From contig NZ_QLVG01000032.1 of the NCBI RefSeq assembly GCF_003382685.1, positions 1 through 64,000 of the forward strand: 64,000 bases of DNA, written 5' to 3'. This DNA comes from Halorussus litoreus (GTDB lineage Archaea; Halobacteriota; Halobacteria; Halobacteriales; Haladaptataceae). Under the pieces are notes generated by a model. It worked only from the letters and a program-made list of their open reading frames with translations, did not search any database and had not been told where the DNA came from. Shown here piece after piece: positions 35,078-54,056 of this stretch. The translations under genes and the position numbers were made by a program. Numbering within the stretch: the first letter of the stretch is position 1; every line of letters starts with the position of its first letter.

Positions 35078-35280
35078 GGACCCTGTGCATCAGACTAGTA
35101 CGAGTACTGGCCTCAGGTGGCGGCCGTTTCTCTATATGTGGCTGATCAAGATAGCCCTCTATACCCACGTAAAGAGCATCTATAAAACACGTTGAAGGTA
35201 TAAACTGTAGGCCACGATATAGCAATCCCCTCGCTCCATTCGATAAACACTTGGTCAAGGATTCTATTGGGTTGCATAAT

Positions 35281-36297
35281 ATGGTCGATGTCGAGACAGT
35301 AGCCGTGTTCAGTTGTGAAATGGAGGAAGATATCGAAGATCCGACTCCAGAGCTAGTCGGTACACTTGACGAAGACGATTTAACTACAGAAGCGGGTACC
35401 GAAGCCGAGCGAATTGTCGCAAGTATGCTTCGGGATACCCTCGGCAGGCGTTACGACAGCGACGAAACCAAGAATGCTCGCAATCATGAGTTTACCGACG
35501 CCGCGCAGAGTGCATCTGTCAACCTTGAAAGCGAAACCCGAACGACTATCGAACTGCTAGATTCAGTTCGAGACGGGACCGATCTGGAACGTGCTGGCGA
35601 ATCCCTTTCACAGCTCTATCTTAATGAGGCACGTTCTGTCTCTGATCTTCTGATTTATACTCAATTTGAAGAGTATGACGAGACGTTCGCTGGAATTCTC
35701 AAGACACCCTATTTGGAAGGGGCACACGAAATTGACCTTGATCACGAAGATACAGAAGCGGTGTTCACTGAGAATGAGCGCGTCATCCAGGAGGAGACCG
35801 ACAAGAGTGCCGTTTACCCGAAATACGATCAGTATGAAGACGTTTTCGACAATAATAGTGTGCAGCTGTATCAGGAGGGAGGAGCACAACATTATGCTAA
35901 ATATTGGCATGGTTTTCTGAATTCCAAGGCAACTCCCCACCCTGACGAACTAGTTGAGGCCGCTATCAAGCAGCGTGCCAACGAAAGTGAGACAGAGGCA
36001 GCCTATTCGACATACGGGGAGTTCACAGATGGGGCGGATATCACTCTAGATGATGAGAGCGAACCTCAAATGGACATTGACCAAGGCGGTGTGAGCGTCC
36101 GAATTGCCGGAAAATCAATCCGAGTATCTATAAAAGAATTGCGTGAAAGCGATAGCGTTCAGCTTGCACGCGATGGTGACCAGTTCTATCTGCTATTATC
36201 CGATCTCCAACCTGAACTCACAGTTGGAAGTGGGAACTCAAAGCGTTCGCTCGTAGATAATCTCTCTAGCGTACCGAACATCCAAGAATTATTCTGA
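35281..36297 (+). CDS. Unknown soluble protein of a candidate defence pair
   Basis: A 338-residue acidic protein starting at ATG 35281; an upstream TTG at 35251 is less likely. The sequence looks alpha/beta with FAGILKTPYL near 141, YPKYDQYEDVF near 182 and a C-terminal beta-rich domain (VSVRIAGKSIRVSIKEL near 273). No family is recognised with confidence. The membrane-protein gene starts 9 nt after its stop, so they are co-transcribed. Position between an integrase and a methylase-helicase pair suggests a defence island. Codon use is more AT-rich than the flanking integrase. Confidence 0.75.
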   Translation: MVDVETVAVFSCEMEEDIEDPTPELVGTLDEDDLTTEAGTEAERIVASMLRDTLGRRYDSDETKNARNHEFTDAAQSASVNLESETRTTIELLDSVRDGTDLERAGESLSQLYLNEARSVSDLLIYTQFEEYDETFAGILKTPYLEGAHEIDLDHEDTEAVFTENERVIQEETDKSAVYPKYDQYEDVFDNNSVQLYQEGGAQHYAKYWHGFLNSKATPHPDELVEAAIKQRANESETEAAYSTYGEFTDGADITLDDESEPQMDIDQGGVSVRIAGKSIRVSIKELRESDSVQLARDGDQFYLLLSDLQPELTVGSGNSKRSLVDNLSSVPNIQELF

Positions 36298-36306: not shown

Positions 36307-38133
36307 ATGACACCATCCGAGTTTATTGAAAGAGTCTTTGCCGCTGCCAATAGCGACTCGGTGAGCGATGAGGCGGTATCGAATCTCTTCATCGAGGCCG
36401 AGGCGACAACTCTGTCTGAGGAAACGTTTATCGAACTCTTGGAGGCTTGGGATGCGTTTCCATCCTATTTTAGCGGCTTTCGATTGATTGCCGACGATCA
36501 ACGGTTGTTCGAACTGTCTGGTAGAGAACTACGCGCAAACGATGAAGGCCTAACGGCGCTCGCAGAAAGAGAGATAGAACCATCAGTAGATGTTCAACAT
36601 CACCGAGGAGGATTCGACAGGTACTATCCAGACAACATCAGCGAGACTGCGCGCGTACTCTACCAATTTGCAACAGAACTCGATAACGCTGGTATTACGG
36701 TCACTATTGGATTCGGACTACAAAAGAAACGAATTGCCTCTGATCTTCTCACCGAGGAAACTCCGGACCCGGTGAGTTCGGATCTGAACCCAATTCTGTG
36801 GTGGACGCCGACGGAGTTATTCCAATGGATTGGAACGCGAGAACCTGATGAAGTAGCAACTGAGCTATTTGACTATGATTCAGCTCCTATATTCTTATTC
36901 TTCCAAGGCGCTCCTGATAGCCTCTCTCCAATTCCGATGTGGACGGCCACAGACGTTGATACACTACCGAGAGAGGATATCGAGCAGGCAATTGACCAGT
37001 ATCTTGATTCGATGACTTCATCTCGGAAGTACACACACTGGCGTGGAGATCTCTCCCCGATCCATCCTTGTCTAGTAGAAGGATTATGGGATGAATGCAC
37101 AGGTGAAGAGGTCGATACTCTCTATGTGTATGCCTTGCTGGGAGTTCTCTCTGCTGCTGTAGACCGGAATAGTCCTCACATTCAATTTCATTTCTCTAAT
37201 GAACCTGAATTCGCGCCTAAGATTGACCTGGAGGAGCAGTGCGCAGTATGGGGAGAGGATGGGATTAGAGCGATTCAAGATCTTTACCAGTCATTCCAAG
37301 GTGAAGAGGAGAAAGATGCATTTCGGGATCTTTGGCAGTTGGCGATCACCGAACAATGTCGTGGCACGGAGCGAGGTATCGAAATACTCCCAGAGGTCAT
37401 CGAGGATATAAAATCGAGCTACCAGGATCTCCAAGTATCTGCCGTTGAAGAGAATTTCGAGGCCCTTAGCGATGTGCTGGAAGATACGCAGACATTGATG
37501 GCTGGATTAACTGACCGGCTATCATCGGCAGCAAATGAGACTTCTCAAGACATCCAGCGATTGACGTTCACACTTCTCGGAGCGATTGTTGCAAATATCT
37601 TCCTTGTTCTTCGATGGAGTGACCGAAGCCTCGTGCCACCCTTCTCTCTCTTTGTTCTTATCGTTATTGTCGGGTTCTACCTTCCGCTTATTCAGGGACG
37701 AATTGAGGACTTGGATAACACAATCACGGAAGTCAAAAACGACTACGAGTTTTATGAGAAGCACATACGCAGGTTCAACAAGGATCTTTTCCAATTTGGG
37801 GATCTAGAGGACCGAAAATCGGCATACGTGACCTTAGCTAAGAAACAGCGGAAACGTGCACAAACTCAGCTACAAAGAGTATTCTATGCACTATTGACTG
37901 TTTGGAGCGGGTTAGCTATCTGGTCAGGGATTGCGTATCCATTCGGCCAATCGCAATCTCTGGCACTGGCTGTTTCTGGGGTAGTGCTCGGAATTCTTTT
38001 CTTCGGACCAACGGAGGGACCGTTCGGCCACAGAGGCTACGAATATTTCAGTAATCGGGCTGCAACAGCCACAATTGTTATCATCGTATTATCATTCCTG
38101 CTACCATTGTTCACGCCATTTCTAACGATTTGA
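36307..38133 (+). CDS. Unknown five-pass membrane protein with large cytosolic domain
   Basis: A 608-residue protein. Residues 1-410 are soluble and acidic. Two membrane helices lie near 418-437 (LTFTLLGAIVANIFLVLRW) and 444-465, then a charged coiled-coil-like stretch (470-515), then three more helices near 522-543, 548-567 and 585-606. A large soluble part joined to a membrane part suits a sensor-effector. Co-transcribed with the 35281 gene. No family recognised. Confidence 0.75.
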   Translation: MTPSEFIERVFAAANSDSVSDEAVSNLFIEAEATTLSEETFIELLEAWDAFPSYFSGFRLIADDQRLFELSGRELRANDEGLTALAEREIEPSVDVQHHRGGFDRYYPDNISETARVLYQFATELDNAGITVTIGFGLQKKRIASDLLTEETPDPVSSDLNPILWWTPTELFQWIGTREPDEVATELFDYDSAPIFLFFQGAPDSLSPIPMWTATDVDTLPREDIEQAIDQYLDSMTSSRKYTHWRGDLSPIHPCLVEGLWDECTGEEVDTLYVYALLGVLSAAVDRNSPHIQFHFSNEPEFAPKIDLEEQCAVWGEDGIRAIQDLYQSFQGEEEKDAFRDLWQLAITEQCRGTERGIEILPEVIEDIKSSYQDLQVSAVEENFEALSDVLEDTQTLMAGLTDRLSSAANETSQDIQRLTFTLLGAIVANIFLVLRWSDRSLVPPFSLFVLIVIVGFYLPLIQGRIEDLDNTITEVKNDYEFYEKHIRRFNKDLFQFGDLEDRKSAYVTLAKKQRKRAQTQLQRVFYALLTVWSGLAIWSGIAYPFGQSQSLALAVSGVVLGILFFGPTEGPFGHRGYEYFSNRAATATIVIIVLSFLLPLFTPFLTI

Positions 38134-38457: not shown

Positions 38458-41400
38458 ATGTCTGACACTCAACTTGACGAGATTCGTCGCCAGCTCGATA
38501 AAGAACTCTCCTTAGAGAAGTTCGAAGATGATGCTCGGGATACTGAAGAGGCCGCTACGCAGTTCTTCCAAGATCTCTTCGTCCAACTGCTCAACTTCGA
38601 CATGAGTGTCTCAGCAACTGGACAGGATACATGGCACGAGCTACCGGCACACAGATGGCGTGATAGTGCTCGGGCGAACGCTGCACGTCTATTCGCTGAG
38701 GCGAGGAACTTCCGCGTTGTCTACGTCGAACTTGATAGGCTGACCCGTACTGCCGAACGAAATGCTATCCAGAGTCTCACGCGCTCCGACCGAAGAGGAG
38801 GATGGGCTATTGAGGGGTCCTTCCTCACGGTTTTCCACGCACCTGACGAGGAAACCTGGCACCTTGTGACGCCCTATGAGGAAGGAACTGACGACATTAC
38901 TACCGGACGACCGGTACTCCGCCGGTATACACTGGGCGAAGGAGAAACACACCGGACAATCGCTACTGCGCTCCAGGGCATGGATGCGAGCCAAGGACGG
39001 CTCGCAGAACGGATTGACGAGGCGTTCAGTGTCAAGCCGGTTACTGAGGACTTCTACGAGGACTACAAGAGCGTTTACGATACTCTTAGTGATGAACTTC
39101 GCAATAAGGGGCTTGACATCGAGGAAGCGGACCAGTACGCACACGTCACGCTGAACCGGCTGATGTTCTTCTATTATTTGCAGAAGAAGGGCTGGATCGG
39201 TGACCGGAAAGACTTCGTCCACTGGTTCCTCGAGCAGTACGAGGACTCTGCTGACTCGGAAGAATTACACGAAAAGTGGCTTTCAACCCTGTTCTTCGAC
39301 GGGATGAATCAGCCGGCTGGCGAATCGATAGATGCTGATCTGCCAGAGCCTGTCGAAGAAGCGATCTCGGGGATCCCTTACATGAACGGTGGGCTGTTCC
39401 AATCCACAGGACTCGATAAAAACGATACGTTCCTCTCGGACGCTGCTCTGAACACGGTCATTCGTGGCTTCCTCGAACAATACAACTTCACCGTCACAGA
39501 AGAAAGCGCGTACGATATTGACGTCGCTGTTGACCCGGCGATGCTTGGCAAAATCTATGAATCTCTCATCGCGGAAGAAGATCGGGGAGATTCTGGTATC
39601 TTCTACACGCCTCGGACCGAGGTTGACCTTATGTGTAGGTTTGCAATTTACGAGCAACTGACCGAGGAAGCAGAGATCTCGTCAGATGCGGGTCGAAAGA
39701 AAATCACCGATTTTGTCTTCTCCGAACCGGACGCTTGGGAAGGGGGTGTAGAGGAAACGTCAACTCTCGAACAGTACCTCGAGGGACTGGATATCGTCGA
39801 TCCCGCATGTGGTTCAGGTGCCTTCCTCGTTGGCATGGTACAGGTACTATCAGAGTTGTATCGCAAATGTGACACCGACCTCGGATTCGAGGAGAAACGG
39901 CGTATCATCAACTCAAACATCTATGGAGTCGATATCAAGGATTGGGCGGTGCGCGTTGCTGAATTCCGTCTTTGGTTGTCGCTCATCGAGACCTCGGATA
40001 CGGTCCCAGACGAACAGCCCGTGCTTCCAAACTTCTCATTTAATCTTCAGACCGGCGATAGCATCATTCAGCGTGTAGGTGATCGCCGGATCTCTGTTCG
40101 ATCTCTTATTCAGTCCCCGAGTGACGACGTACAGAGAGGACTCAGTGAGGTTGAGGAACTGAAACAAGGATACTTCGAGGGAGAACGGAGTGACGAGGAC
40201 GCGATCAAACGAAGACAAACGGAGCTTCTGAAACAGCACATCTCGGAAGTCATTCGACGTAAGGATTCGGGGGAACAACAGACTCTAACCGGGGACGTAA
40301 GCGATTCCGAGACGGGTCGACAGACGCAGGTCGAGATCGAACGGCTGACTGAAGTTAAGGACCGACTCGATTCGTCTGGCAGTGAAGCGTTCTTCCTTTG
40401 GGAATTGAGTTTTTCCGAGGTTATGCTGAACGGGGGATTCGACATTGTTATCGGCAACCCTCCGTACATCGGGAACGAATTCATAACCGATCCGTCAATC
40501 GCTCAAGAGCGTCTTGACCAGATGGACGACGACCAGCGAGAAGAAATACAAGACAGATACAAGCAGCAACTAGGTGAGTACGTCGAAGAGACCTATGGAT
40601 TTGAACCCGATGGGCAGAGCGATTACTATGCCCATTTCTTCTTTAAAGGATTAGAGATTCTCGATCAAAATGGGACCCTCAGCTACATTACTTCTGATAA
40701 ATGGTTGGATCGAGGATACGGCTCTGATCTTCAGGAGGTCTTCCTGACCCACACCGATTTGAAATCAATCCTCGCAAACCGGACGAAGCGATCTTTCGAG
40801 GAAGCGGACATTACGACGGCAATTACGACAGTGGAGAAGCGCGACTCAGACGCCAGACAGCTTGGTGGGATGCCAAGATTCATTTCCTGTTCAGAACCTT
40901 ATAGCCAGATTGTTACCACGGAGAACATCCCGTCGTTGCTCTATGGAAGCCACAATAAGGAAGCGGAATATCGATCCGAAACGCTCTATCTTTCCACTCA
41001 GCCGTACGCACGCGTCGTTTCTATCGATGCGGCGAGCCTATGGCAACTCGGTGGTGGTCAAATCAATGAAAACGGTATCGACAGTTCCGGGAAAGTAACT
41101 CCTCAGGGAAGCTACGACGGTGATAAGTGGGGGAGTATGTATATCCGTGCACCTGACACAGTCTTCGAGATCTTAGAAACGCAGGGCGACCGTGTACAGA
41201 CACTGGAGAATTACGGCGTTACGAGCTATCTTAACACAGGTGGCGCGAAAAAGTTCTACGTCGTAGAGCGTGTTGAGGAGATAGGAGACGGCTTGTCCCG
41301 AATTCGGAATCGGGAATACGACGAAGAATTCGTGGTGGAGAATCAGTTCCTGAAACCGTTCCTCGGATCCCCAAGAGACACGACATCGCTTCGTATCACC

Positions 41401-42057
41401 ACCGACGATCCCGGCGACGTTCGAATCCTATCAATCCCTCCAGAAACGGATATTGATTCGTTTGAAGTCCACGATTACATCCAGTTTGGCGAAGAGAAGG
41501 GTTACAGTGAACGGTCGGGTCCCAGTCGCCGTAGCCCTTGGTGGAAGCCCCCTTCCAAGGCGGCGAACGGGGCCAGCATTGTTCTGCCACGTACTCACAA
41601 CGACAACCATCGGGCATTTTACAATCCGGAGAAAGTAATCACCGGTCGGTTCTACCGTGTGGATCCAGAAGATAGCGAGTACATATCCCTGATATTAAAT
41701 TCCACGTTCGGGAGTCTCTTCTTCGAAATCTACGGAGATCCACGAGGCCAGGGAGCACTGGATCTCTACACTGGCGATTACGGGAAATTACCGGTAATCG
41801 AACCAGACACAGAAGGCGAATCCGTTCCGGACGCTGCCTTATCGATGCTCGACCGAGAGCCCGAATCAGTGTTCGAGGAGTTAGGAGCGGAAACTCCCGA
41901 AGCGGTTGAATTGGCGGGGGTGAAGGAAGACCGCCGGGAGCTCGATCGGTACGTAATGGCTGACGTGATTGGTCTCTCCGAACAGTCGCAGCTAGATATT
42001 TATAAAGGCCTGCTTAGACTTGTTGACGAGCGACTCAGTAAAGCAGATAGCGTCTGA
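38458..42057 (+). CDS. Eco57I-type N6-adenine DNA methylase
   Basis: A 1199-residue protein. Residues 20-400 are a helical N-terminal region of the type II-L/PglX kind; no PD-(D/E)xK nuclease motif was seen. The SAM site DPACGSGAFLVGM is near 448 and the catalytic NPPY (VIGNPPYIG) near 663. The remaining 500 residues are target recognition. The PLD-helicase gene begins 9 nt after its stop. The pair resembles the methylase-plus-helicase logic of DISARM and BREX, in which host DNA is marked and unmarked DNA attacked. Confidence 0.92.
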   Translation: MSDTQLDEIRRQLDKELSLEKFEDDARDTEEAATQFFQDLFVQLLNFDMSVSATGQDTWHELPAHRWRDSARANAARLFAEARNFRVVYVELDRLTRTAERNAIQSLTRSDRRGGWAIEGSFLTVFHAPDEETWHLVTPYEEGTDDITTGRPVLRRYTLGEGETHRTIATALQGMDASQGRLAERIDEAFSVKPVTEDFYEDYKSVYDTLSDELRNKGLDIEEADQYAHVTLNRLMFFYYLQKKGWIGDRKDFVHWFLEQYEDSADSEELHEKWLSTLFFDGMNQPAGESIDADLPEPVEEAISGIPYMNGGLFQSTGLDKNDTFLSDAALNTVIRGFLEQYNFTVTEESAYDIDVAVDPAMLGKIYESLIAEEDRGDSGIFYTPRTEVDLMCRFAIYEQLTEEAEISSDAGRKKITDFVFSEPDAWEGGVEETSTLEQYLEGLDIVDPACGSGAFLVGMVQVLSELYRKCDTDLGFEEKRRIINSNIYGVDIKDWAVRVAEFRLWLSLIETSDTVPDEQPVLPNFSFNLQTGDSIIQRVGDRRISVRSLIQSPSDDVQRGLSEVEELKQGYFEGERSDEDAIKRRQTELLKQHISEVIRRKDSGEQQTLTGDVSDSETGRQTQVEIERLTEVKDRLDSSGSEAFFLWELSFSEVMLNGGFDIVIGNPPYIGNEFITDPSIAQERLDQMDDDQREEIQDRYKQQLGEYVEETYGFEPDGQSDYYAHFFFKGLEILDQNGTLSYITSDKWLDRGYGSDLQEVFLTHTDLKSILANRTKRSFEEADITTAITTVEKRDSDARQLGGMPRFISCSEPYSQIVTTENIPSLLYGSHNKEAEYRSETLYLSTQPYARVVSIDAASLWQLGGGQINENGIDSSGKVTPQGSYDGDKWGSMYIRAPDTVFEILETQGDRVQTLENYGVTSYLNTGGAKKFYVVERVEEIGDGLSRIRNREYDEEFVVENQFLKPFLGSPRDTTSLRITTDDPGDVRILSIPPETDIDSFEVHDYIQFGEEKGYSERSGPSRRSPWWKPPSKAANGASIVLPRTHNDNHRAFYNPEKVITGRFYRVDPEDSEYISLILNSTFGSLFFEIYGDPRGQGALDLYTGDYGKLPVIEPDTEGESVPDAALSMLDREPESVFEELGAETPEAVELAGVKEDRRELDRYVMADVIGLSEQSQLDIYKGLLRLVDERLSKADSV

Positions 42058-42066
42058 TAACAAATC

Positions 42067-45000
42067 ATGAGTGATCTCAATATCATAGATAACCGTCGCT
42101 ATTCACACCTCGATGAGGTGCTAAAGACGGGGCTGGACAACGACAGCGTAGATCGAGTTCGAATAGCGGTCGGGTATCTCTACATGAGCGGCCTCAAGCG
42201 CCTCCGACCCGAACTCGACGAGTTCCTCGATAACGGTGGCACGCTTCAGATCCTAATGGGAAATCCAGACCAGCAGGGGCTGGACGAACTTATCGAAGCC
42301 CACCAGAACCGACGTCTCACGGAAACGAAATTCCGACAGGCGAGTAACGTTCAATGGAGTGAACGTCCCGAAATTCGCGCCAATACTGCCGATAACTATT
42401 CGCATCAGCTACTCTACGAGGACCCGACGGCGGAGAATCAAGCGTTCTTCACGAAACTCGTAGACTGGCTGGAGCAGGGCCGCATTGAGCCCAAACTCTA
42501 CCTAGAAGAGCGATTCCACGCGAAAGCCTACCTCTTCGAGAAGGACGAGGGTGACATCTTCGAGCCAAAAGACGTCGGCGTCGTCGGGTCATCGAATCTC
42601 AGTCTCAGTGGGCTTCACAGTAATACGGAACTCAACGCCCCGGTATACAACGAGAAGGTCCGACAGCTGAAGGAGTGGTTCGACGACCTATGGGACGACG
42701 CCGTCGAGTTCGATGCTGAACTCCTGGACGTGTTTGAGGACTCGTGGGTAGCGAATAACCCAGGCCATGTGACCAGCGAAGGCGACACTCCCGCAATTCC
42801 CGGTGATGAACTCCCGGACGATACCACCGAAACCCTTCAGGAGGTCAGCAGTGGGACTGGCCTACCGGCACCGTACATCGTGTACGTCAAAATCCTGTAC
42901 GAGCTCTATAAGGAGACGTTGGAAACCGCCGAAGATTACCTCCAGTCGTTCGACGTCTACGAAGATCTCTACGACTTCCAGCAGTGGGCCGTGAACCGTG
43001 GCATCCGCATCGTCAACAAGTACGACGGCGTGGTCGTCTCCGACGTCGTCGGGATGGGGAAGACGTTCGTCGGGCTCGGTCTCCTCGAACACTTCCATGC
43101 CCGCAATCGATTGCGTGGTGAGAAGGGGAAGATGCTGATTATCTCCCCAAAGCATCTCCAGCCGATGTGGGAACGGATGGTCAACCGGCGCTACAACTTC
43201 AACGCCGAGGTCATCAGTCTCGGGCATGTCTCGAAAGAGGACTACCAAGAGGTCCTCTTGGAGGAACACGACGATACGACAGTCTGCCTTATCGACGAGG
43301 CCCATCACTTCCGAAACGACGACACAAACCGGTACGATAACCTCCAATCCTTCCTGCCGACGGTCAACCAGACCATCCTGCTGACTGCGACGCCGTATAC
43401 GAAGAGCGCGTTCGACGTCTACAATCAGATTAAACTCTTCCACATTGAGGATATCACACCGATTCCGATTACGCCGCCGAACCTCCAGGAGTTCACGAAG
43501 CTGGCGGAGAATGGTGAGAAGGACCTGTCGAACCTGCTCAGCCACGTGATGGTTCGTCGGACTCGCCAGGACATCATCGACCAATACGGTGAAGAAGACG
43601 ATGATGGACGAGAGTATCTTCAGATGGATGGCGAACGTCGATACCTCCCAGATCGCCACCTCCAGACGGTTAACTACAATCTGCACGACACCTATTCAAC
43701 CGGTGATGGAGTCAGCAATTCGCTCTATGTCCCCATTGTGGATACTCTCGAGGAGCTCACGTTCGCGCGGTATTCGCTTGGCCAAGAGGACTATCTGAAG
43801 AACGAGTTCGCTCATCGCGATCCGTATCAAAATCTCTCGTCGATGGGGCGGAGCATTCGTGGACTAATGAAGTCCAACCTACTGAAGCGATTAGAGAGCA
43901 GCGTCCACGCGTTCTATACCTCGCTGAACCGAATGCTCCAAAGTTATCGGATATTCCGTGATCTCCTAGACGAGGGAACAGTAGCGGTCGGTAGCGATGT
44001 CTCGGAGCTAATCAACAGTGGCGAGCAGATCGATTATATACTCGAAGAAATCGACCAAATGGTAGAGGATGAGGAATATGCAGAGTACGAAACTAATGCA
44101 TTTCATCTCGACGATTTAAAGCGCGATCTCGAAGCCGACATTCAGCTCCTCTCCGATCTCCAGTCGACACTCGAACCCTTCCACGAAGAGATCAAGCACG
44201 ATTTCTCGATGGACGACAAAGCAGAGCAACTACGGCAGCTGCTCACCGAACTTCGCTTCGGATCACACGAAATCCTGGAACGCGGTGACAATGCCGAGAA
44301 ACTCATTGTATTTACACAGTTCACTGATACCGTAGAGTATCTGGAATCTGCATTCGAACAGTTTCAGGATAACGGACAGCTCCCTGGCGATGTGCGATTT
44401 GCGAGTGCGAGCGGCGATTCCTCGAACGTCGAAGACACCATACAACGGTTCGCACCTGAGGCGAACGATGCTCGGGACAGCGTGGACCCAGGTGATGAGA
44501 TCGATATCCTGTTCGCAACAGACGTCGCCGGCGAGGGTGTGAACCTTCAGGATGCCAATCTCGTCATCAACTACGATCTACACTGGAACCCGCTTCGTCT
44601 TATACAACGTATCGGTCGCGTTGATCGCCTTGGGAGCGGCCACGATCATATCTATGCGCTGAATTTCCTCCCCGAAACCGAACTCGAGGAGGAATTAGGG
44701 ATTGTCGAACGAGTCGAGGGTCGTGTCCAAGAGATCGGCCGTGTCCTTGGGGAAGATGGGGCGATTCTGAGTCCGGAGGACAATATCAACCGGTCGTACA
44801 TGGAAGATATCTATGCCGAGGAAGACATCGAGAAGGTCGAAGATGACGTGGACGAGATCATTGGCAGCGACGACCTGATTGGTCCAGCATCCAATCTCCA
44901 GGATCTTAAACGAAAGCACCCGGACTTGCTGACCTGGCTCGAAGACCGCGACGGCATCAGGAGTGCGATGGAGTGGAATCGAGACTACGATGGCGTTGTC

Positions 45001-45567
45001 ATCGTATATCGGCAGGGTGAGTATACGACGCCGTACTTGGTGGCTTTCCCATCTGAGGGTGGAAAGTCCCTCGAATCAGAGGAGAAGGATGCTGTCGTTG
45101 AGACAGTTGTTTGTCCCGTTGACGAACCGGTTGCCGACGTAGATGCCGAGACCTTTGACGAACGGTACGAGCAAGCTGTCCAGGTCGCTCGAACGGAGTT
45201 CGGCGAAGACATGGGTGAACGACGTCGTTTCCAACAGGAGGCACAACGAGGAGCGAGTGTCGACCGTGAGTACGTCATTGAAGAGCTCGGGGAAATCTCG
45301 GCATCGGTCGAGAATCCTGATCAGCAGCGGACTCTCGCACGGTATCAGGATATAGTGGAGACTGTTTCAGCCGACCAGATTCTCGATGAATTTGGTACGC
45401 TTCGTGATGAAGGGGTCACTGGCGATGAACTCGTAGATGCAGTTGTAGAGATCATGTCCCGGTACAACCTCGAGGAGCGATATGAAGAGCGACAACAGTG
45501 GGCCGAAGAACAAGAGGAACCACCACACGTCGTGGCGGGGATGTATCTCAAGGGAAGCGCTGACTAA
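42067..45567 (+). CDS. PLD-nuclease / SNF2-like helicase fusion
   Basis: A 1166-residue protein. Residues 1-220 are a phospholipase-D-type nuclease: HAKAYLF near 151 and GSSNLSLSGL near 174 form an HKD-like motif. VVGMGKTFVG near 327 is Walker A, CLIDEAHHF near 407 the DEAH box, and FATDVAGEGVNL near 816 with RIGRVDRLG near 848 are helicase C motifs of SF2/SNF2 translocases. The C-terminal 250 residues are of unknown function. With the methylase upstream it would be the restriction arm. DISARM uses separate helicase and PLD proteins; here they are one chain. Confidence 0.92.
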   Translation: MSDLNIIDNRRYSHLDEVLKTGLDNDSVDRVRIAVGYLYMSGLKRLRPELDEFLDNGGTLQILMGNPDQQGLDELIEAHQNRRLTETKFRQASNVQWSERPEIRANTADNYSHQLLYEDPTAENQAFFTKLVDWLEQGRIEPKLYLEERFHAKAYLFEKDEGDIFEPKDVGVVGSSNLSLSGLHSNTELNAPVYNEKVRQLKEWFDDLWDDAVEFDAELLDVFEDSWVANNPGHVTSEGDTPAIPGDELPDDTTETLQEVSSGTGLPAPYIVYVKILYELYKETLETAEDYLQSFDVYEDLYDFQQWAVNRGIRIVNKYDGVVVSDVVGMGKTFVGLGLLEHFHARNRLRGEKGKMLIISPKHLQPMWERMVNRRYNFNAEVISLGHVSKEDYQEVLLEEHDDTTVCLIDEAHHFRNDDTNRYDNLQSFLPTVNQTILLTATPYTKSAFDVYNQIKLFHIEDITPIPITPPNLQEFTKLAENGEKDLSNLLSHVMVRRTRQDIIDQYGEEDDDGREYLQMDGERRYLPDRHLQTVNYNLHDTYSTGDGVSNSLYVPIVDTLEELTFARYSLGQEDYLKNEFAHRDPYQNLSSMGRSIRGLMKSNLLKRLESSVHAFYTSLNRMLQSYRIFRDLLDEGTVAVGSDVSELINSGEQIDYILEEIDQMVEDEEYAEYETNAFHLDDLKRDLEADIQLLSDLQSTLEPFHEEIKHDFSMDDKAEQLRQLLTELRFGSHEILERGDNAEKLIVFTQFTDTVEYLESAFEQFQDNGQLPGDVRFASASGDSSNVEDTIQRFAPEANDARDSVDPGDEIDILFATDVAGEGVNLQDANLVINYDLHWNPLRLIQRIGRVDRLGSGHDHIYALNFLPETELEEELGIVERVEGRVQEIGRVLGEDGAILSPEDNINRSYMEDIYAEEDIEKVEDDVDEIIGSDDLIGPASNLQDLKRKHPDLLTWLEDRDGIRSAMEWNRDYDGVVIVYRQGEYTTPYLVAFPSEGGKSLESEEKDAVVETVVCPVDEPVADVDAETFDERYEQAVQVARTEFGEDMGERRRFQQEAQRGASVDREYVIEELGEISASVENPDQQRTLARYQDIVETVSADQILDEFGTLRDEGVTGDELVDAVVEIMSRYNLEERYEERQQWAEEQEEPPHVVAGMYLKGSAD

Positions 45568-45635: not shown

Positions 45636-45986
45636 GTGACCGAACTGAGCCAGCTTCCCACGACAGAATCGGGACACGTAGTGAAACGGCACTCAATGCA
45701 GTGGCTGGAAGGATTGACAGAGCGAAGCGAGAAGGAGTTCAAAGCTGCAGTAGTGCCGAAGCCTGCCGAATTCTCCGGGAGTAAGTACCCAACGGAGATC
45801 TCGACTGTTCGGATTACAGGGGGACCAGAATTTATTGAAGCTGCTGGTAGCCTTCTCAAACCACTGCTTGATTTCGAGAACGATACAACTCGTGTGGAGA
45901 TCAATCTTCAGCAGACAGAAGATCGGGACACTGGAAATTTGACCGATAACTACGCACTCTATATCTCGATAGCAGAGCGTGGATAG
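45636..45986 (+). CDS. Small unknown protein
   Basis: A 116-residue frame starting at GTG 45636; an internal GTG (VKRHSMQWLEG) is another possible start. The middle reads YPTEISTVRITGGPEFIEAA, a beta-alpha pattern that may be a small ferredoxin-like domain, ending IEINLQQTEDRD-like strands. It follows the helicase by 68 nt and may be read through. Family unknown. Confidence 0.6.
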   Translation: MTELSQLPTTESGHVVKRHSMQWLEGLTERSEKEFKAAVVPKPAEFSGSKYPTEISTVRITGGPEFIEAAGSLLKPLLDFENDTTRVEINLQQTEDRDTGNLTDNYALYISIAERG

Positions 45987-46420: not shown

Positions 46421-47221
46421 ATGACGAGCATTGAGGAACCAGACAATATTGGTGGTGCTGACATTCATCGTGCGTCTGAACTTGAGGGATGCAAGGTCGT
46501 ATTCACCGGTCGACTCTCAGAAGTCACTCGATCTGAAGTGAAGACCCTTGTTGAAAACCACGGCGGAAAGGTCACGAACAACATCTCTCGTCAGAGCGAC
46601 GTTCTCGTCGTTGGGGAGAATCCAGGCACTGAGAAAATCGAATTCCTCGATGACCACGATATCTCGACTCTCACCGAGGCCGAGTTCTACAGTTTGTTCC
46701 CGAGCCGCTTTGACGACGTGGATGGTGTTACAGCCAGTAAGCCAGCTCAGTCCACGTTACCCGACGATGAACTTGGCACACTTACTATCGAGATCGAACC
46801 CCTTGTCCTCCAGGTCGCTAAATTCGAAGCCGAGAACAAGGGTGAAAAGCTAAACTCGTTAATTGAACGTTCAACCCGAGGGCTTCTCAAACAGGTCATT
46901 GACGGAGAACCATTACGTATGGCCGAATTCAACGACAGGGAATCCCTCGATATATCACTACCGCAGAATCTGCTTGCAATGGTCGAGACGGCAGTCGAAA
47001 CGACGCCAAGAGTGGAAACAGCAGAGGAGTTCGTCGTCAGAGCACTCCATTCGGAACTTGGATTCGAAGCTTCAGAGATGCAAGAGCTAACGTTGACACT
47101 TCCAGGGAGTATTGTTTCCTCCCTCAACTACCTCTCAGAGGCGGAGAACGATTGCGATGTGAACGAGCTTGCAGTTCAACTGCTCTATACTGGGCTGCCA
47201 GAACGTTTTAAGACCGAATAG
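46421..47221 (+). CDS. BRCT-domain protein
   Basis: A 266-residue protein. Residues 18-95 are a BRCT domain like the C-terminus of bacterial DNA ligase: LEGCKVVFTGRLSEVTRSEV, then GGKVTNNISRQSDVLVVGE and KIEFLDDHDISTLTEAEF. The rest is helical, with repeated LPGSI/LLYTGL-type stretches. BRCT domains bind phosphopeptides or DNA ends. TATA-like AAATTATAAAACC lies about 35 nt before ATG 46421. Confidence 0.85.
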   Translation: MTSIEEPDNIGGADIHRASELEGCKVVFTGRLSEVTRSEVKTLVENHGGKVTNNISRQSDVLVVGENPGTEKIEFLDDHDISTLTEAEFYSLFPSRFDDVDGVTASKPAQSTLPDDELGTLTIEIEPLVLQVAKFEAENKGEKLNSLIERSTRGLLKQVIDGEPLRMAEFNDRESLDISLPQNLLAMVETAVETTPRVETAEEFVVRALHSELGFEASEMQELTLTLPGSIVSSLNYLSEAENDCDVNELAVQLLYTGLPERFKTE

Positions 47222-47287: not shown

Positions 47288-47836
47288 ATGGTACAAGTCG
47301 TCAACGTCGTTGCGTCGGGGGCCTTAGACGTCGAACTCGATCTGGAGGTAGTCGCCCGAGACCTTGTCGATATCGTCAACTACGATCCCGAGCTATACCC
47401 TGGCGCCTACTTCCGGTTCGATGACGACGCGCCGCTGATAACACTGTACCGCACCGGGAAGTACATCATCACCGGAGCGTCATCGGAAGCCGAGGCTGGA
47501 AGATTCCGGAATGAATTCCTCGCCTTGTTGAATCGCCACGGGATCGTATCGGATGCTGATGATGCATGGTTCACAGTCCAGAACTACGTGTGTATGGCGA
47601 ATATGGAGCGATCGTTCAATCTGTCAGCCCTTGCGATCGGTTTAGGGCTTGAGGTGACAGAATACGAGCCTGAGCAGTTCCCCGGCCTGGTGTACCGACC
47701 CCACGACCACGCATGCGTACTACTGGTCTTTGCCACTGGCAAAGTAGTGATCACTGGCGCTCCAGAGATTGCTGCGGCTGAAGCAGCCTTCTCGGCATTC
47801 CGTGAATCAATCGAAGCGCTACTTGCGGACGAGTGA
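47288..47836 (+). CDS. tbp: TATA-binding protein (extra, plasmid-type)
   Basis: A 182-residue TBP with the two direct repeats of the saddle fold: YPGAYFRFDDDAPLITLYRT and FPGLVYRPHDHACVLLVFAT, each followed by GKxxITGA. It is divergent from typical archaeal TBP: the phenylalanine-bearing stirrup PxAxxLxF is altered in both halves. Haloarchaea carry multiple TBPs that select promoter subsets, so this one may direct plasmid genes. CATTATATAG (about 47238-47247) is its own TATA box. An inverted-repeat copy lies 20 nt after the stop. Confidence 0.92.
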   Translation: MVQVVNVVASGALDVELDLEVVARDLVDIVNYDPELYPGAYFRFDDDAPLITLYRTGKYIITGASSEAEAGRFRNEFLALLNRHGIVSDADDAWFTVQNYVCMANMERSFNLSALAIGLGLEVTEYEPEQFPGLVYRPHDHACVLLVFATGKVVITGAPEIAAAEAAFSAFRESIEALLADE

Positions 47837-49670: not shown

Positions 49671-50156
49671 ATGAGTCAAGCACCCTCTGACCCCGCGAGC
49701 GATGCACCGTCAACTGAAACAGCCCCTACTGACGACCAGACCGCCGAGTCGACGATCAGCCACCGTCTCAAAACAGTCCTCGCCCGAGCGCCCCCGCGGT
49801 TTGTCTCCCTCACGATGGGGCTCGCGTTCCTCGTCGTCGCTGTTGGCCCGGCTGCCGCACAGAGTCAGGTCGGCGACGTGTACTGTAACACTGGCGTCGC
49901 GACAGGGATTGACCTCGTGTTCGGCGCGGTCGCTGGTCTCGGCCTTCCCGCAACCGGTTTCTACACCGGGAAGGCTGGCCTTTCGTACATGCGGGCCGGC
50001 GGTAACCCCGAGAAGAAAAACGATGCCAAGGAAAAGCTCGTCATGTCCGGCATCGGCTTCGGCATCGTCACCCTCGCACTCGTCTCGCCAGAACTCATCG
50101 ACAAGGTCGGTAGCCAGATGGGATTCGGCTTCTCAGACTGCGTCAAACCATTTTAG
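49671..50156 (+). CDS. VirB2/TrbC-like pilin subunit
   Basis: A 161-residue protein. A polar N-terminal 38 residues precede a hydrophobic stretch (SLTMGLAFLVVAVGPAAAQ near 43-61) that looks like a cleavable signal with AAAQ end. Two more hydrophobic segments follow (DLVFGAVAGLGLPATG and GIGFGIVTLALVSP), the VirB2 pilin layout. The two Cys residues (VYCNTG and SDCVKPF) may pair outside. Order in the operon (VirB2-, VirB6-, VirB4-, VirD4-like) supports the call. Confidence 0.7.
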   Translation: MSQAPSDPASDAPSTETAPTDDQTAESTISHRLKTVLARAPPRFVSLTMGLAFLVVAVGPAAAQSQVGDVYCNTGVATGIDLVFGAVAGLGLPATGFYTGKAGLSYMRAGGNPEKKNDAKEKLVMSGIGFGIVTLALVSPELIDKVGSQMGFGFSDCVKPF

Positions 50157-50208
50157 GCCCATCTGAGATCGACAGCGAACTATCCCCGCGTCCCTTGCCC
50201 CGTACATC

Positions 50209-51969
50209 ATGTACTCCCTCCGCACGATGGCTGCCGTGCTTGCCCTCTTTCTCGTGAGCAGCAGCGCTGTAGTTGTCGTTGCGGGAGGCATGGCTCCCGC
50301 CACAACACCCGATTCCGGATCCGCTGTTCCTGATGATGGTCCCGACTACGGCGTGAATAACAGTACGTTTCAGCGCCTCTGGTCCGAGGATGCCGACAAC
50401 GGCAATCTCTCAGCCGACGATTTCGACGGTGCAAACGTTTCATCGCGTGCCGAGTTCGCACACCGACTTGCTCGGTCGACGGACATCCCGTTCGATCAGC
50501 CACCACAGGCTGCTGAGGACTGGAATAATGGAGATTTCGGTGATTACAGTCCTGGTAGCCGAGATTCATCTATCCATCCTGAAAGCGCAACCCTCGAAGA
50601 CGGTGTGTACATAAAGGATGCGTATGTTAGCATCTTCGCCACCCAACCGTCGACGATCCTCCACCAAGGGAACGAGACGACGCAATACGTTGCCCCAGAC
50701 GGCCAGGTCCGCGCACTCAGTGACTACCGCGTTGCTGTTCCCCAGGGTGATCAGAACGGGTCACAGCGAGAACACTGGTCGATCGACCAAACTAGTATCG
50801 AGTCTGTTGAGCTCTCCGCTGATGGACGAACCATCGACACTGGGAGCGGCCATCAGGCAACGCTCCAGTATACCGGCCTCTCGGGTTCGCCGCAGCTGAC
50901 CGTCGAGGCCAATATCACGGTACAACTCCGTCACGTCACGCTGGATTGCCCAGACTGGAACTCCTCGATATCCAGTTGTGACGGGAATTGGAATCGCGAT
51001 GTCGAAACCCCTGAAGCATCGAAAACGGTGTCGACATCACAGACAGTCGTTGTTAATCAGCTCTCCGGTATTTCTGGGAACCGCGTCCAGTTCGAGGCAC
51101 ACGAGAACCAGGTCGGCGCGGTCGTCCATCCAAACACTGAATGGTCGACGATTACGGTCGACGGCAACGTTCGGGCCCGAAGCAATTGGTGGTTCTACAC
51201 GGCCGGCCGAGCCGGCTGGCAGACGATGGTCACAAGCACCGCGACCAACACGTCGCGTGCTGAGTCGTCGGTACGTCCCGTCCAAGTTCACGCATTCCCG
51301 AGCCAGCAAGCACCGTACGTGCCGACTGAACCGACCGACGCCGGGAAGCGACCACTCGCCATCGAGGAAACGTGGGGGACAGAGCAGTCAGGGCCATCGC
51401 TGCCGGCGAATATTGACCTCGAGTCTGCCAATCCGTACGTGAACGCAGATTCGATAGCTGTGAGTTCTACAACTCTCGACAAGAGCGCCTTCAGCGAGGT
51501 TACGGTCCAGGGCATCGTCCGCGGGCAATCACGAACGGTTTCGCTCTCCGAACAACAGACCGTCCGCGAGACGAATCTCACCTTGACCGTCACCGAAGCC
51601 AACGCTACCCACGCGGTCGTCCGGGCGATGGTCACGGAGAACGCGACCGATGACGCTGTCACGACTGGCCGCGTGACAATTCGGAACCAGACCGCGGCGC
51701 TCAACAGCAGCGGAATGGCCGTCGTTACCATCTCGAATCCGTCCCTGCTCGTTCGAGGCCAGTACACCTCGGATGCTTGGTGGCGGACTGACCAGCCCTA
51801 TGCAGCGTCGGAAGATGTCGCGAAGACCCCTGCGAACTTCCCCGACGTCCAGACCCTTATCCAGCTCGTCGTCGTGACAATTCTCTGGTTCATCCCCGTC
51901 GTAGTCCTGGTCTTCGGCTTTGACTATATGACCGGAGGCGCGCTGCTTGGACTCACAAACCGAACATGA
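50209..51969 (+). CDS. Secreted, C-terminally anchored surface protein of the transfer operon
   Basis: A 586-residue protein. Residues 1-26 are a Sec-type signal (MAAVLALFLVSSSAVVVVAG), the middle 500 residues are extracellular, Asn-x-Ser/Thr-rich (many N-glycosylation sites) and beta-rich, and residues 553-575 (LIQLVVVTILWFIPVVVLVF) are a C-terminal membrane anchor. Repeated DCPDWNSS/SCDGNW cysteines suggest disulfides. It may be the cell-contact or envelope component of the conjugation apparatus. It overlaps the next gene by four bases (ATGA). Confidence 0.8.
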   Translation: MYSLRTMAAVLALFLVSSSAVVVVAGGMAPATTPDSGSAVPDDGPDYGVNNSTFQRLWSEDADNGNLSADDFDGANVSSRAEFAHRLARSTDIPFDQPPQAAEDWNNGDFGDYSPGSRDSSIHPESATLEDGVYIKDAYVSIFATQPSTILHQGNETTQYVAPDGQVRALSDYRVAVPQGDQNGSQREHWSIDQTSIESVELSADGRTIDTGSGHQATLQYTGLSGSPQLTVEANITVQLRHVTLDCPDWNSSISSCDGNWNRDVETPEASKTVSTSQTVVVNQLSGISGNRVQFEAHENQVGAVVHPNTEWSTITVDGNVRARSNWWFYTAGRAGWQTMVTSTATNTSRAESSVRPVQVHAFPSQQAPYVPTEPTDAGKRPLAIEETWGTEQSGPSLPANIDLESANPYVNADSIAVSSTTLDKSAFSEVTVQGIVRGQSRTVSLSEQQTVRETNLTLTVTEANATHAVVRAMVTENATDDAVTTGRVTIRNQTAALNSSGMAVVTISNPSLLVRGQYTSDAWWRTDQPYAASEDVAKTPANFPDVQTLIQLVVVTILWFIPVVVLVFGFDYMTGGALLGLTNRT

Positions 51970-52853
51970 ACGAAAATACAAGCTCATCCAGTCACGAGAG
52001 GTGTATCGACCGTCGAACAGTCCTTAGTGGACTCAGCGGAGTCCTCGTTGCGCTCGCTGGCTGTTCCTCCTCGCCATCCGATACTAACAGCCCTAGTTCC
52101 GGGACATCGCCACCTCCCGAAGGTGAAACCGATACCTTTGCGAGCGTCGCGATGAACGAAACCGACCTCGTCGTTGAACTCGCCAGCGACACCGACGTGG
52201 ATTCGGTGAATCTCATCAACCCGAATGGTGAGATGAATTCGCTTCAGCGGGTCCAAGAGGGAGCGACACAGGTCACATTTCAGCTGCTCGGTGAAGCTGA
52301 AGACGGGTACACGCCTGGTGACTACCGCGTCGTCGCTGTCGCTGATGACGAGACAATCGGCGAGACGACGATCTCCCTCCAGCCCGAGGTCACGATTACA
52401 GATGTCATGTGGGCGCAGAACCACCCAGATCTAAACTGGGATAAAGACCGGTCAACGTGGCGGCAATTCGCCGCTCTTACTGTCGAGAACACAGGGAATG
52501 CGCCGACGTATCTCACGGCACTTCAGTGGGCAAATTCGCCGCATACCAAGGTATCTCCGTCGGAGACGCTGACGCACAATCCTACTACCCTCATACCTCC
52601 TGGAGAGACAACTATCTACTCTGCCGCTCCGATATATCAGACGGAAGATCCTACTGGTGTTCACGGGGCCATCGATTGTGGCAACCTGGAAACGGATACG
52701 CTCACCGTCACAGGAGTCGTCCAGGCCGGGACGAATCCGTCGTACTCACAGACAATCGAGTATGGTGGGGCGAAATACTCGTGTGAACTAACCATCGTGG
52801 ACGGCAGCCCGACTGAATCGTCCCAAACGACATCGAACGAGAGTGATACCTGA
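51966..52853 (+). CDS. Tat-dependent lipoprotein of the transfer operon
   Basis: A 295-residue protein. RCIDRRTVLSGLSGVLVALA followed by GC gives a twin-arginine signal and lipobox, so it is exported folded and lipid-anchored at Cys33. The rest is two immunoglobulin-like beta domains with DTDVDSVNLINPNGEMNSL and EVTITDVMWAQNHP. No enzyme motif. The next gene begins on the base after its stop. It may be an envelope-spanning accessory of the secretion channel. Confidence 0.85.
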   Translation: MNENTSSSSHERCIDRRTVLSGLSGVLVALAGCSSSPSDTNSPSSGTSPPPEGETDTFASVAMNETDLVVELASDTDVDSVNLINPNGEMNSLQRVQEGATQVTFQLLGEAEDGYTPGDYRVVAVADDETIGETTISLQPEVTITDVMWAQNHPDLNWDKDRSTWRQFAALTVENTGNAPTYLTALQWANSPHTKVSPSETLTHNPTTLIPPGETTIYSAAPIYQTEDPTGVHGAIDCGNLETDTLTVTGVVQAGTNPSYSQTIEYGGAKYSCELTIVDGSPTESSQTTSNESDT

Positions 52854-54050
52854 ATGGGGTGGATGGAAGAGCAGGTTGAGGACGCCATCGAGAATGTACT
52901 CACGAGCATTAAAGAAGCGCTCCTTGGGTTCGCGAATGACATCTTCGAGGCACTTCTCAATCCGATTGTCGGTGTCCCTGCGCCGGAATCCAGCTCCCGG
53001 TACATCGTCGTTGGCACACCGGATAATGATCCATGGCAGAGCCTGTACGCGGACTTTTACGTATCGTACATCCTGCCGTTGACGATTATGTTACTGGTCG
53101 TCGGGCTCGCGTACATCGGCCTCCGGTCGGGATCGATCAGTAGCTACCGTCGCAAGCGGCTCCTCCGACGTATCGGTCTCGTGTTCATGGGCACGTTTGT
53201 CTGGTTCCCGCTTGTGTCGCTCCCGCTCCAGTTTGTCGATGCACTGGGACTCACGCTTGCCCCGATCGACAGTATGTCGGCCGGATTCGGGAGTCTCATC
53301 GAATCAGCAGTCGGTGGCCTCTTCGTCGTTCTCGCCATGGTGATCATCTCGAACTTTCTGCTCATTGTCGCTGCCATCGTCTACGGTCTTCGCTGGCTGG
53401 GAATCCTCGTACTGACGCCGTTGATGCCGTTGCTCGGCGTCTTCTGGGCCCTCGACGTGTGGCCGCTCAGTCCGGCCTCGGAGATCGCTCGCCGCGCTGC
53501 TGGCATCTATCCTGGTCTCGTTCTCGCGGGACTTCCTGCTGCAGTCCTCTTCCGAATCGGCTGGCAGATGAATCTCACAGCGAGTGCAGACGGAATCTTC
53601 TCGCTATTCCTCGGGCTCGTGCTCATCCCGGCGGCCTGTCTCGCCTCGATAATGACCGTCTACTGGTCTGCCCCTGCGGTCCAGACAATCGCCCGACAGG
53701 GAGCGGGAAAGACGAACCCCGTGGCTGCCGCCTCAGCTGCGAAGAAAGGCACCGGGAAATCGGTTCGCGGTGCCCGCAACGTCCATCGAGGGTACGCGCA
53801 GAACGGCCACGGGCCGGTGACAAAGAGCGGGCAGACCCAGCTCGGTAGCGGTGACTCAAAAGCCTACAAACTCGGCTCGTCTGCGCAGTCAACGAAAGAC
53901 CACGCAGGCCGCTACAACAACCTCCGGAAATCGAGGACGGGGCGTATGCGCGATAAGACGAAAGAAGACGTGAATCAGGCCACACAGGCGGCGAAGGCCC
54001 GGTCGAAGCAGGCGTTCAGGAACACGAAAAACAAGGTTTCGCGGTGGTGA
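52854..54050 (+). CDS. VirB6/TrbL-like polytopic membrane protein
   Basis: A 398-residue protein with about six or seven membrane helices between residues 70 and 275 (ILPLTIMLLVVGLAYIGL, FMGTFVWFPLVSLPL, SAVGGLFVVLAMVIISNFLL and others) and a 110-residue basic, Gly/Lys-rich cytosolic tail. This is the VirB6/TrbL inner-membrane channel layout. The basic tail is atypical for haloarchaea and may bind nucleic acid or membranes. It is 6 nt before the VirB4-like gene. Confidence 0.82.
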   Translation: MGWMEEQVEDAIENVLTSIKEALLGFANDIFEALLNPIVGVPAPESSSRYIVVGTPDNDPWQSLYADFYVSYILPLTIMLLVVGLAYIGLRSGSISSYRRKRLLRRIGLVFMGTFVWFPLVSLPLQFVDALGLTLAPIDSMSAGFGSLIESAVGGLFVVLAMVIISNFLLIVAAIVYGLRWLGILVLTPLMPLLGVFWALDVWPLSPASEIARRAAGIYPGLVLAGLPAAVLFRIGWQMNLTASADGIFSLFLGLVLIPAACLASIMTVYWSAPAVQTIARQGAGKTNPVAAASAAKKGTGKSVRGARNVHRGYAQNGHGPVTKSGQTQLGSGDSKAYKLGSSAQSTKDHAGRYNNLRKSRTGRMRDKTKEDVNQATQAAKARSKQAFRNTKNKVSRW

Positions 54051-54056
54051 CGATTC

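What the first reader, a model, noticed from the sequence alone, without database searches (positions are those of the whole stretch)
38458..45567. Compact methylase plus PLD-helicase restriction-like system
An Eco57I-type methylase and a single chain combining a PLD nuclease with an SNF2-like translocase overlap in function with DISARM (methylase, helicase and PLD as separate proteins). No drmB-like DUF1998 gene was seen nearby. This could be a minimal two-gene form.
Basis: partly seen in the sequence, partly recalled or inferred. Interest (0 to 1): 0.55.

Follow-up and report, generated by a model that had tools for sequence, protein, structure and literature searches.

The report
Two-gene motor-driven restriction-modification system in haloarchaea
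A salt-loving archaeon carries a two-gene DNA-defence unit, in which a methylase that probably chooses the DNA site works with a motor-plus-nuclease that probably destroys unmarked DNA, and a special TATA-binding protein that usually lives next to such systems sits close by.

Summary
In detail: an Eco57I-type methylase (1199 aa) and a PLD-SNF2 protein (1166 aa) lie 9 bp apart, with catalytic motifs intact. It is not a minimal DISARM: it misses the curated DrmD cut-off fourfold, has no DUF1998 gene on its contig, and in a tree 35 such helicases separate from DrmD and DUF499-system helicases. The pairing recurs in 33 of 39 loci examined, from haloarchaea to cyanobacteria and Bacteroidota, and was noted once in print (Lactococcus plasmid pLd8, 2018).

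Across nine close haloarchaeal loci the helicase is 92-96% identical (83-85% to the window) while the methylase's C-terminal third falls to 23-60%. This fits a motor restriction system whose specificity lies in the methylase. The Synechocystis relative is, by elimination, M.Ssp6803IV (GA-m6A-GGC). Cleavage is inferred.

Unexpected lead: the TBP gene 1.7 kb downstream belongs to a TBP variant (N-terminal intercalating Phe pair replaced by Tyr-Tyr). Of 40 such genes picked only by TBP similarity, 39 lie beside restriction-modification genes; a methylase-motif test rang in 1 of 20 housekeeping controls. Such 'tbpC-like' TBPs had no known role; they may be archaeal restriction controllers.

The parts
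38458..42057 (+). N6-adenine-type DNA methyltransferase with a variable C-terminal part, 1199 aa
   Evidence: Pfam Eco57I, MmeI_Mtase, N6_Mtase; no nuclease family hit; a methylase ORF is next to the helicase in 33 of 39 loci (plus the window)
39799..39825 (+). SAM-binding motif I, residues 448-456 DPACGSGAF
   Evidence: alignment of 18 methylases
40456..40467 (+). catalytic NPPY, residues 667-670
   Evidence: identical in 18 of 18 aligned methylases
40945..42054 (+). putative target recognition part of the methylase, residues 830-1199
   Evidence: 23-60% identity between loci whose helicases are 92-96% identical
42067..45567 (+). PLD nuclease fused to an SNF2-type ATPase motor, 1166 aa
   Evidence: Pfam PLDc_2, RE_NgoFVII, SNF2-rel_dom, Helicase_C; PADLOC C3a139 HKD+Snf2, 198.8 bits
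42517..42597 (+). PLD catalytic motif, residues 151-177, HxKx4E ... GSSN
   Evidence: H151, K153 and GSSN in 32 of 32 relatives
42964..44856 (+). SNF2 motor core, about residues 300-930, with Walker A/B and motif VI intact
45636..45986 (+). conserved 116-aa accessory ORF of unknown function
   Evidence: present in 8 of 9 close loci if L004 and L007 are two halves of one locus; the family also occurs away from such pairs
47288..47836 (+). variant TATA-binding protein (tbpC-like: Tyr-Tyr in the N-terminal repeat, Phe-Phe in the C-terminal repeat)
   Evidence: Pfam TBP; groups 100/96 with the TBP next to a related pair in G127; 39 of 40 relatives lie beside R-M genes

Best explanation
A two-component, ATP-dependent restriction-modification system of the Type I / Type ISP working kind. 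The methylase is modification and specificity subunit in one chain: its C-terminal part reads an (inferred asymmetric) site and marks one adenine. The PLD-SNF2 protein is the restriction subunit: recruited or activated at unmethylated sites through the methylase, it hydrolyses ATP, moves along DNA, and cuts with a PLD active site built from two protomers, as in SauUSI. Shown here: intact motifs, pairing, conserved motor with diversified methylase C-terminus, separate phylogeny. Supported from print by elimination: the Synechocystis homologue methylates GA(m6A)GGC. Inferred: complex formation, translocation, cleavage and phage defence. The nearby tbpC-like TBP probably controls expression of the system.
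For: Domains and motifs. Pairing in 33 of 39 loci (plus the window). TRD-like divergence among the non-window loci: helicase 92-96%, methylase residues 1-640 74-95%, residues 830-1199 23-60%. Halosimplex salinum holds two copies: helicase 94.5% over 796 aa, methylase N part 87%, C part 29%, as two specificities in one cell would look. At DNA level the genus relative G391 aligns over the helicase and the methylase 5' half but not the 3' half. Mobile, patchy setting: 4 of 391 genomes have a close copy; homologues on plasmids; defence-type neighbours such as McrBC; the window has conjugation genes. Synechocystis pSYSX has two annotated DNA methyltransferases; pSYSX encodes M.Ssp6803IV and V, V is Slr6095 of the Type I operon, IV makes GA(m6A)GGC, so IV should be the one beside the PLD-SNF2 gene. 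SauUSI precedent for PLD + SF2 translocase in one chain (PMC7913695, passages).
Against: No phage, cleavage or methylome data for any haloarchaeal member. AlphaFold models were useless (mean pLDDT 38.6 and 42.5), so there is no fold evidence for the TRD, for a dead N-terminal nuclease, or for contact between the two proteins. Two bacterial homologues (L008, L011) have another large ORF instead of a recognised methylase, one (L084) only a methylase fragment, and L066's methylase is 4.2 kb away. The M.Ssp6803IV assignment is by elimination, not read directly. The divergent C-terminus of the window's methylase could in part be plain drift, since its N part is also only 65-66% identical to the others.
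Confidence: 0.75

Rival explanations
1. A minimal DISARM: DrmM plus a fused DrmC-DrmD that lost DrmA and DrmB, sensing incoming DNA the DISARM way.
For: DrmD and DrmMI are among the PADLOC hits (115 and 70 bits). Same kinds of domains.
Against: DrmD model 144.5 of 610 bits needed. No DUF1998 on the contig. The tree splits the 35 PLD-SNF2 helicases from DrmD, with the caution that DrmD is a long branch. No loss intermediate was seen in the loci looked at.
Confidence: 0.06
2. A derived DUF499 BREX-related (Hma, type 2) system that lost DUF499 and DUF3780.
For: Type-2 BR systems use an HKD-SNF2 helicase with an N6-methylase (PMC12839542, passages and section 28).
Against: No DUF499 hit lies at any of the pairs of 25 genomes searched. 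NF042964, the PLD protein of such a system, scores 117.6 of 1100 bits. BR helicases fall on the other side of the tree. The Acinetobacter example carries a DUF1156 methylase; ours hits Eco57I, not DUF1156. The window's own genome carries a separate DUF499 locus with its own HKD helicase on C28.
Confidence: 0.06
3. The methylase is a stand-alone type IIG enzyme (cutting and marking in one chain) and the PLD-SNF2 protein an independent type IV nuclease like SauUSI; they are neighbours in a defence island only.
For: PADLOC's best hits call the methylase type IIG. SauUSI is a PLD-SF2 enzyme acting alone.
Against: Fixed pairing over great distance. No nuclease family in the methylase and no PD-(D/E)xK pattern kept in its N-terminus across groups. 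The helicase shows no block as variable as a separate recognition domain would be in these close loci.
Confidence: 0.08
4. An epigenetic regulator or repair module rather than restriction.
For: SNF2 proteins also act in transcription and repair (recalled; weak matches to RapA and chromatin remodellers).
Against: Patchy distribution, plasmid and defence-type setting, conserved PLD catalytic residues, changing methylase C-terminus.
Confidence: 0.05

Closest known systems
Lactococcus lactis plasmid pLd8 orf33/orf34 (putative type II R-M, PMC6098607)
   Same: Same two chains: PLD + SNF2 helicase, and a type IIG-like adenine methylase without nuclease domain; the authors also compared it with DISARM class I (section 10 read)
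   Different: Bacterial; the sequence was not in the collections under the accessions tried, so identity was not measured; no TRD, tree or TBP analysis in the section read
PADLOC family C3a139 'HKD+Snf2' (PDLC01075)
   Same: Best profile for the window's helicase and for 4 of 4 further helicases scanned
   Different: A single-protein profile; the scan output names no system with a methylase
DUF499-centred BREX-related type-2 system / Hma
   Same: HKD-SNF2 effector with an N6-methylase, proposed to act as R-M
   Different: Has DUF499 and DUF3780; no DUF499 at our pair; different methylase family; separate branch in the tree
DISARM class I / ARMADA
   Same: SNF2-type helicase plus Eco57I/PglX-like methylase pair
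   Different: No DrmB and no YprA-type helicase found beside our pair; the effector carries its own PLD domain; separate branch from DrmD
Type I and Type ISP restriction enzymes; SauUSI; CglI/NgoAVII
   Same: ATP-driven restriction; SauUSI has PLD + SF2 in one chain; CglI and NgoAVII pair a PLD nuclease with an SF2 ATPase
   Different: Type ISP is one chain and Type I has a separate HsdS (recalled); SauUSI is modification-dependent with its own TRD; in CglI/NgoAVII PLD and ATPase are on different chains
Halobacterium tbpC-like TATA-binding proteins (PMC4230888)
   Same: N-terminal intercalating Phe pair lost, C-terminal pair kept (here)
   Different: The passages read do not link them to restriction genes and leave their role open

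Membership tests
DISARM | DUF1998 protein DrmB (PF09369 region) in the locus | tested here: not met
   No PF09369 hit on contig C17 (87.8 kb); hits on C4 and C7 only
DISARM | DrmA helicase and stand-alone DrmC PLD | tested here: not met
   PADLOC scan of 17 window proteins (7, 10); only weak cross-hits of our own helicase; not every window ORF was scanned
DISARM | DrmD above curated cut-off | tested here: not met
   144.5 of 610 bits, 75.4 of 950
BREX | PglZ and BrxC present, PglX above cut-off | tested here: not met
   PglX models 43-74 bits against cut-offs 400-900; no PglZ or BrxC shown for the 17 window proteins scanned (lists cut at 25 rows for our two proteins)
DUF499 BREX-related type 2 (Hma) | DUF499 ATPase in the locus | tested here: not met
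   No DUF499 hit at the pair in any of 25 genomes
DUF499 BREX-related type 2 (Hma) | DUF3780 protein | not tested
   not searched by itself; the window neighbours scanned had no Pfam hit of that kind
Type IIG restriction enzyme | nuclease and methylase in one chain | tested here: not met
   No nuclease family in the methylase; no conserved PD-(D/E)xK in its N-terminus by eye on the alignment
Two-gene PLD-SNF2 + Eco57I-type methylase module (as on pLd8) | both chains, adjacent, motifs intact | tested here: met
ATP-dependent restriction-modification (working kind) | variable recognition part; conserved motor | tested here: met
   (sequence pattern only)
ATP-dependent restriction-modification (working kind) | cleaves unmethylated DNA with ATP | not testable with these tools
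   needs experiment
tbpC-like TBP (window 47288-47836) | N-terminal Phe pair lost, C-terminal pair kept | tested here: met
   Window Y,Y / F,F; definition read in PMC4230888

The most novel reading that the evidence does not exclude
Haloarchaea have domesticated the TATA-binding protein as a dedicated controller of restriction-modification. A variant TBP with Tyr-Tyr for Phe-Phe in its first repeat, the window's included, is carried next to many different R-M systems (Type I, MmeI-like + SNF2, PLD-SNF2 pairs, HRAMP-like loci). It would time methylase against nuclease expression when the system enters a new host, as C proteins do in bacteria, or keep the genes on when a virus shuts host transcription down. 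This would give the tbpC-like TBPs a role.
Probability: 0.45. Interest if true: 0.8.

Novelty: new variant of a known kind. Interest (0 to 1): 0.6.

Why it matters
The pair suggests that a restriction system can be reduced to two chains, with specificity carried by the methylase and cutting by a PLD-tipped motor, outside DISARM and BREX. The module is common (helicase matches at E <= 1e-30 in 67 of 391 haloarchaeal genomes, several sub-families together) yet the papers seen give it no system name. The TBP result matters more if it holds: it turns a known puzzle, why haloarchaea keep odd TBPs, into a direct test. Type I R-M operons with the TBP 12 bp behind hsdR are ready-made constructs.

Tried and rejected
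Minimal DISARM, DUF499/BREX-related origin and IIG-plus-type-IV neighbours were considered and set aside (see rivals). Genes 35251-36297 and 36307-38133 upstream were considered as parts: the 608-aa one occurs in 30 of 382 genomes and neither was found at the other loci fetched up, so they are left out. The 116-aa gene was first taken for a fixed third component; its family also occurs away from methylases in most of the 20 loci fetched for it, so it is listed as accessory only. MZB/DUF1998 genes 6.6, 7.6 and 13 kb from the pair in G033, G223 and G127 are separated from it by other genes, and 23 of 25 genomes have one anyway. Structure prediction failed to give usable models, so no fold search was run. 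Viral contigs gave no relative; phage records gave only partial, weak helicase matches. Inverted repeats between TBP and helicase genes in L001, L003, L005: one 10-nt pair in L003 only; the stretch is well conserved but no site was deduced. A PF00352 scan of 59 genomes listed only the best matches, so the TBP test was redone with the window TBP as query. A first TBP count, 14 of 19 divergent TBPs beside methylase, helicase or HRAMP-like genes against 0 of 8 controls (the 19 tallied by hand), came from genomes chosen for having the helicase and is biased; one search drew genomes without regard to it. In one search my stricter marker test gave 27 of 40 and 0 of 20; the looser motif test gave 36 of 40 and 1 of 20; three more (L160, L161, L188) abut an SNF2 helicase, giving 39 of 40; that helicase marker was also looked for in the controls, with 0 of 20. 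In the TBP tree 4 of 5 'unlinked' TBPs fall among the linked ones, and joins of long rows are unsure.
Full report
What is there. The methylase hits Eco57I and MmeI_Mtase in Pfam; the second protein joins a PLD domain (also NgoFVII type) to an SNF2 motor. They are 9 bp apart. The PLD motif reads H-x-K-x4-E followed by GSSN, the same spacing as the H(X)K(X)4E of SauUSI (PMC7913695, passages seen). H151, K153, GSSN and E188, and the ATPase residues K332, D410, E411, R851 and R854, are invariant in 32 of 32 aligned relatives. E158 is not invariant in that alignment. The methylase keeps motif I and NPPY. Its N-terminus has no Pfam nuclease and, by eye, no PD-(D/E)xK pattern kept across groups.

Not DISARM, not BREX, not Hma. 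Curated NCBIfam cut-offs are missed widely: DrmD 144.5 of 610, phospholipase D-like anti-phage protein 117.6 of 1100, DpdE 84.3 of 500, BREX PglX 43-74 of 400-900. The best PADLOC profile is C3a139, HKD+Snf2. No DUF1998/MZB gene lies on the contig and no DUF499 gene lies at the pair in 25 genomes. A tree of 39 helicases puts 35 PLD-SNF2 proteins on one side of a 100/100 branch and two DUF499-system helicases plus two DrmD-type helicases on the other. The root is a midpoint and the four outside rows are long, so nesting is not excluded in principle. The window's close group has Thermococcus profundus (plasmid) as its nearest outside row, 99/98.

How common and how fixed. Of 391 haloarchaeal genomes, 67 match the helicase at E <= 1e-30, 4 of them (with the window's own) at 83% identity or more over full length. 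At least four haloarchaeal sub-families exist, here called g1 (window) to g4. Of 39 helicase loci examined (38 plus the window) 33 have an adjacent large ORF with NPP[YFW], allowing overlaps and gaps up to 1.5 kb. The six others: L060 (contig start), L009 (contig end), L084 (methylase fragment only), L066 (methylase 4.2 kb away), L008 and L011 (a different large ORF). Bacterial pairs stand on plasmids of Synechocystis, Pelobacter, Rhodococcus and Parabacteroides. In the window's genus only G391 of 17 other genomes showed the helicase stretch in a DNA search; the contig length of G391 equals that of the Halorussus aquaticus plasmid NZ_CP100403.1, so the window is probably Halorussus (inference).

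The specificity signature. Helicases (8, L004 being cut) are 92-96% identical among the non-window loci and 83-85% to the window. Methylase residues 1-640 are 74-95% (65-66% to the window). Residues 830-1199 are 23-60% (24-33% to the window). L004 and L006 are two copies in one strain: helicase 94.5% (796 aa), methylase N part 87%, C part 29%. L004 ends at helicase residue 799 on one scaffold and L007 begins at 797 on another, so they are probably one locus. The pattern is that of a recognition part swapped or fast-evolving under a constant motor, and it locates specificity in the methylase.

Function of a relative. On Synechocystis pSYSX the annotated DNA methyltransferases are SGL_RS01600, behind the PLD-SNF2 gene with two small genes between, and SGL_RS19530 in a Type I operon. 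PMC6604393 (passage) says pSYSX encodes M.Ssp6803IV and V. PMC6560206 (passages) says V is Slr6095 of the Type I operon. PMC7296061 (passage) gives GA(m6A)GGC for IV. So SGL_RS01600 should be M.Ssp6803IV; I also recall the name slr6050 for it, which no call confirmed. Its site is asymmetric, so one strand is marked.

Mechanism. Most likely, methylase and PLD-SNF2 protein form a complex; an unmethylated site licenses ATP hydrolysis and movement; two PLD domains make one active site and cut. The last two steps are modelled on SauUSI and inferred. Type I and ISP logic (recalled, partly) is the same with other parts.

What was in print. PMC6098607 (section 10 read) describes orf33/orf34 of pLd8 with this architecture as a putative type II R-M and notes the likeness to DISARM class I. 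PMC12839542 (passages and section 28) describes DUF499 systems with HKD-SNF2 effectors. PMC12458937 (passages) describes ARMADA. I searched the library with the term sets and met no formal name for the two-gene module; most subscription papers are not held.

Company of the pair. A 116-aa gene follows the helicase in 8 of 9 close loci, counting L007 with L004; it is missing in L002. A divergent operon upstream of the pair in 6 of 9 (L001, L003, L004, L006, L045, L046) encodes proteins resembling Cas7 and Cas5 with RNase H-type and HNH nucleases (the Cas7/Cas5 likeness is partly by eye, with a weak Cmr3 match). This fits the published outline of HRAMP (PMC8730458, passages); the founding paper was not held, so the name is an inference. 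Its Cas7-like protein is in 100 of 382 genomes, not in the window's genome. In 16 such loci picked by Cas7-like score or nearness to a helicase, the slot beside the operon holds different large modules, among them g3 and g4 pairs; a g2 pair is in L047.

The TBP. The window's TBP lies 1.7 kb past the helicase. Its nearest row in a tree of 32 TBPs is the one next to the g2 pair of G127 (63%, 100/96), while 8 housekeeping TBPs lie in another starred set. In L001, L003 and L005 a TBP on the other strand sits between methylase and helicase; in L006 and L045 just upstream of the methylase. To test this without bias I searched 292 evenly drawn genomes with the window TBP, took the 40 best hits whose flanks I had not yet read, by TBP similarity only, and fetched flanks plus 20 housekeeping TBPs. 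An ORF of 400 aa or more with NPP[YFW] lies within 5 kb of 36 of 40 and of 1 of 20 controls. Three of the other four abut an SNF2 helicase; the last is on a 3-kb contig. Partners include MmeI-like methylase + SNF2 helicase and classical HsdM-HsdS-HsdR with the TBP 12 bp behind hsdR (L181). All 40 carry Tyr (38) or His (2) and Tyr (40) where the 20 controls carry Phe and Phe in the first repeat; 39 of 40 keep both Phe in the second. PMC4230888 (passages) calls TBPs of this kind tbpC-like and leaves their role open. Searches met no paper that links them to restriction. The 5-kb window and the motif are crude, the 40 are partly related by descent, and linkage is not function. Still, that a TBP variant with a fixed substitution travels with many unrelated R-M types argues for a shared job.

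Verdict. Real, restriction-like, and not DISARM: a member of a widespread but unnamed two-gene kind, new mainly in the evidence for where its specificity lies and in its TBP company.

Noticed in passing
window 47288-47836; L160-L199: TBP variant with Tyr-Tyr in the first repeat is linked to R-M genes in 39 of 40 sampled cases.
   Followed up: yes
L001 1-5254, L003, L004, L006, L045, L046, L047, L075-L090: Cas5/Cas7-like (HRAMP-like) operon beside an exchangeable slot that holds different methylase/helicase modules.
   Followed up: partly
window 35251-36297 and 36307-38133: Two adjacent genes (348 and 608 aa, the second with C-terminal membrane segments by eye) without any family hit; the second in 30 of 382 haloarchaeal genomes.
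   Followed up: partly
window 9768-11792: GmrSD-type restriction protein.
   Followed up: no
window 49671-63221: Conjugation genes (TrbL/VirB6-like, TraG/TraD-like) and an NrS-1 polymerase-like protein: the window looks like a conjugative plasmid or element.
   Followed up: no
G000:C28 (L091, L092): The same genome holds a DUF499 (BR/Hma-type) locus with an HKD helicase of 1308 aa.
   Followed up: partly
G000:C2 (L093, 9730-16820): MmeI-like methylase (1376 aa) + SNF2 helicase (988 aa) with a TBP beside them; the same trio recurs in several genomes with the TBP abutting the helicase.
   Followed up: partly
window 46421-47221: 266-aa protein with an N-terminal BRCT domain like that of LigA, between the pair and the TBP.
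   Followed up: no
L001 9790-10010, L003, L005: Well conserved intergenic stretch between the divergent TBP and helicase genes, a candidate control region.
   Followed up: no
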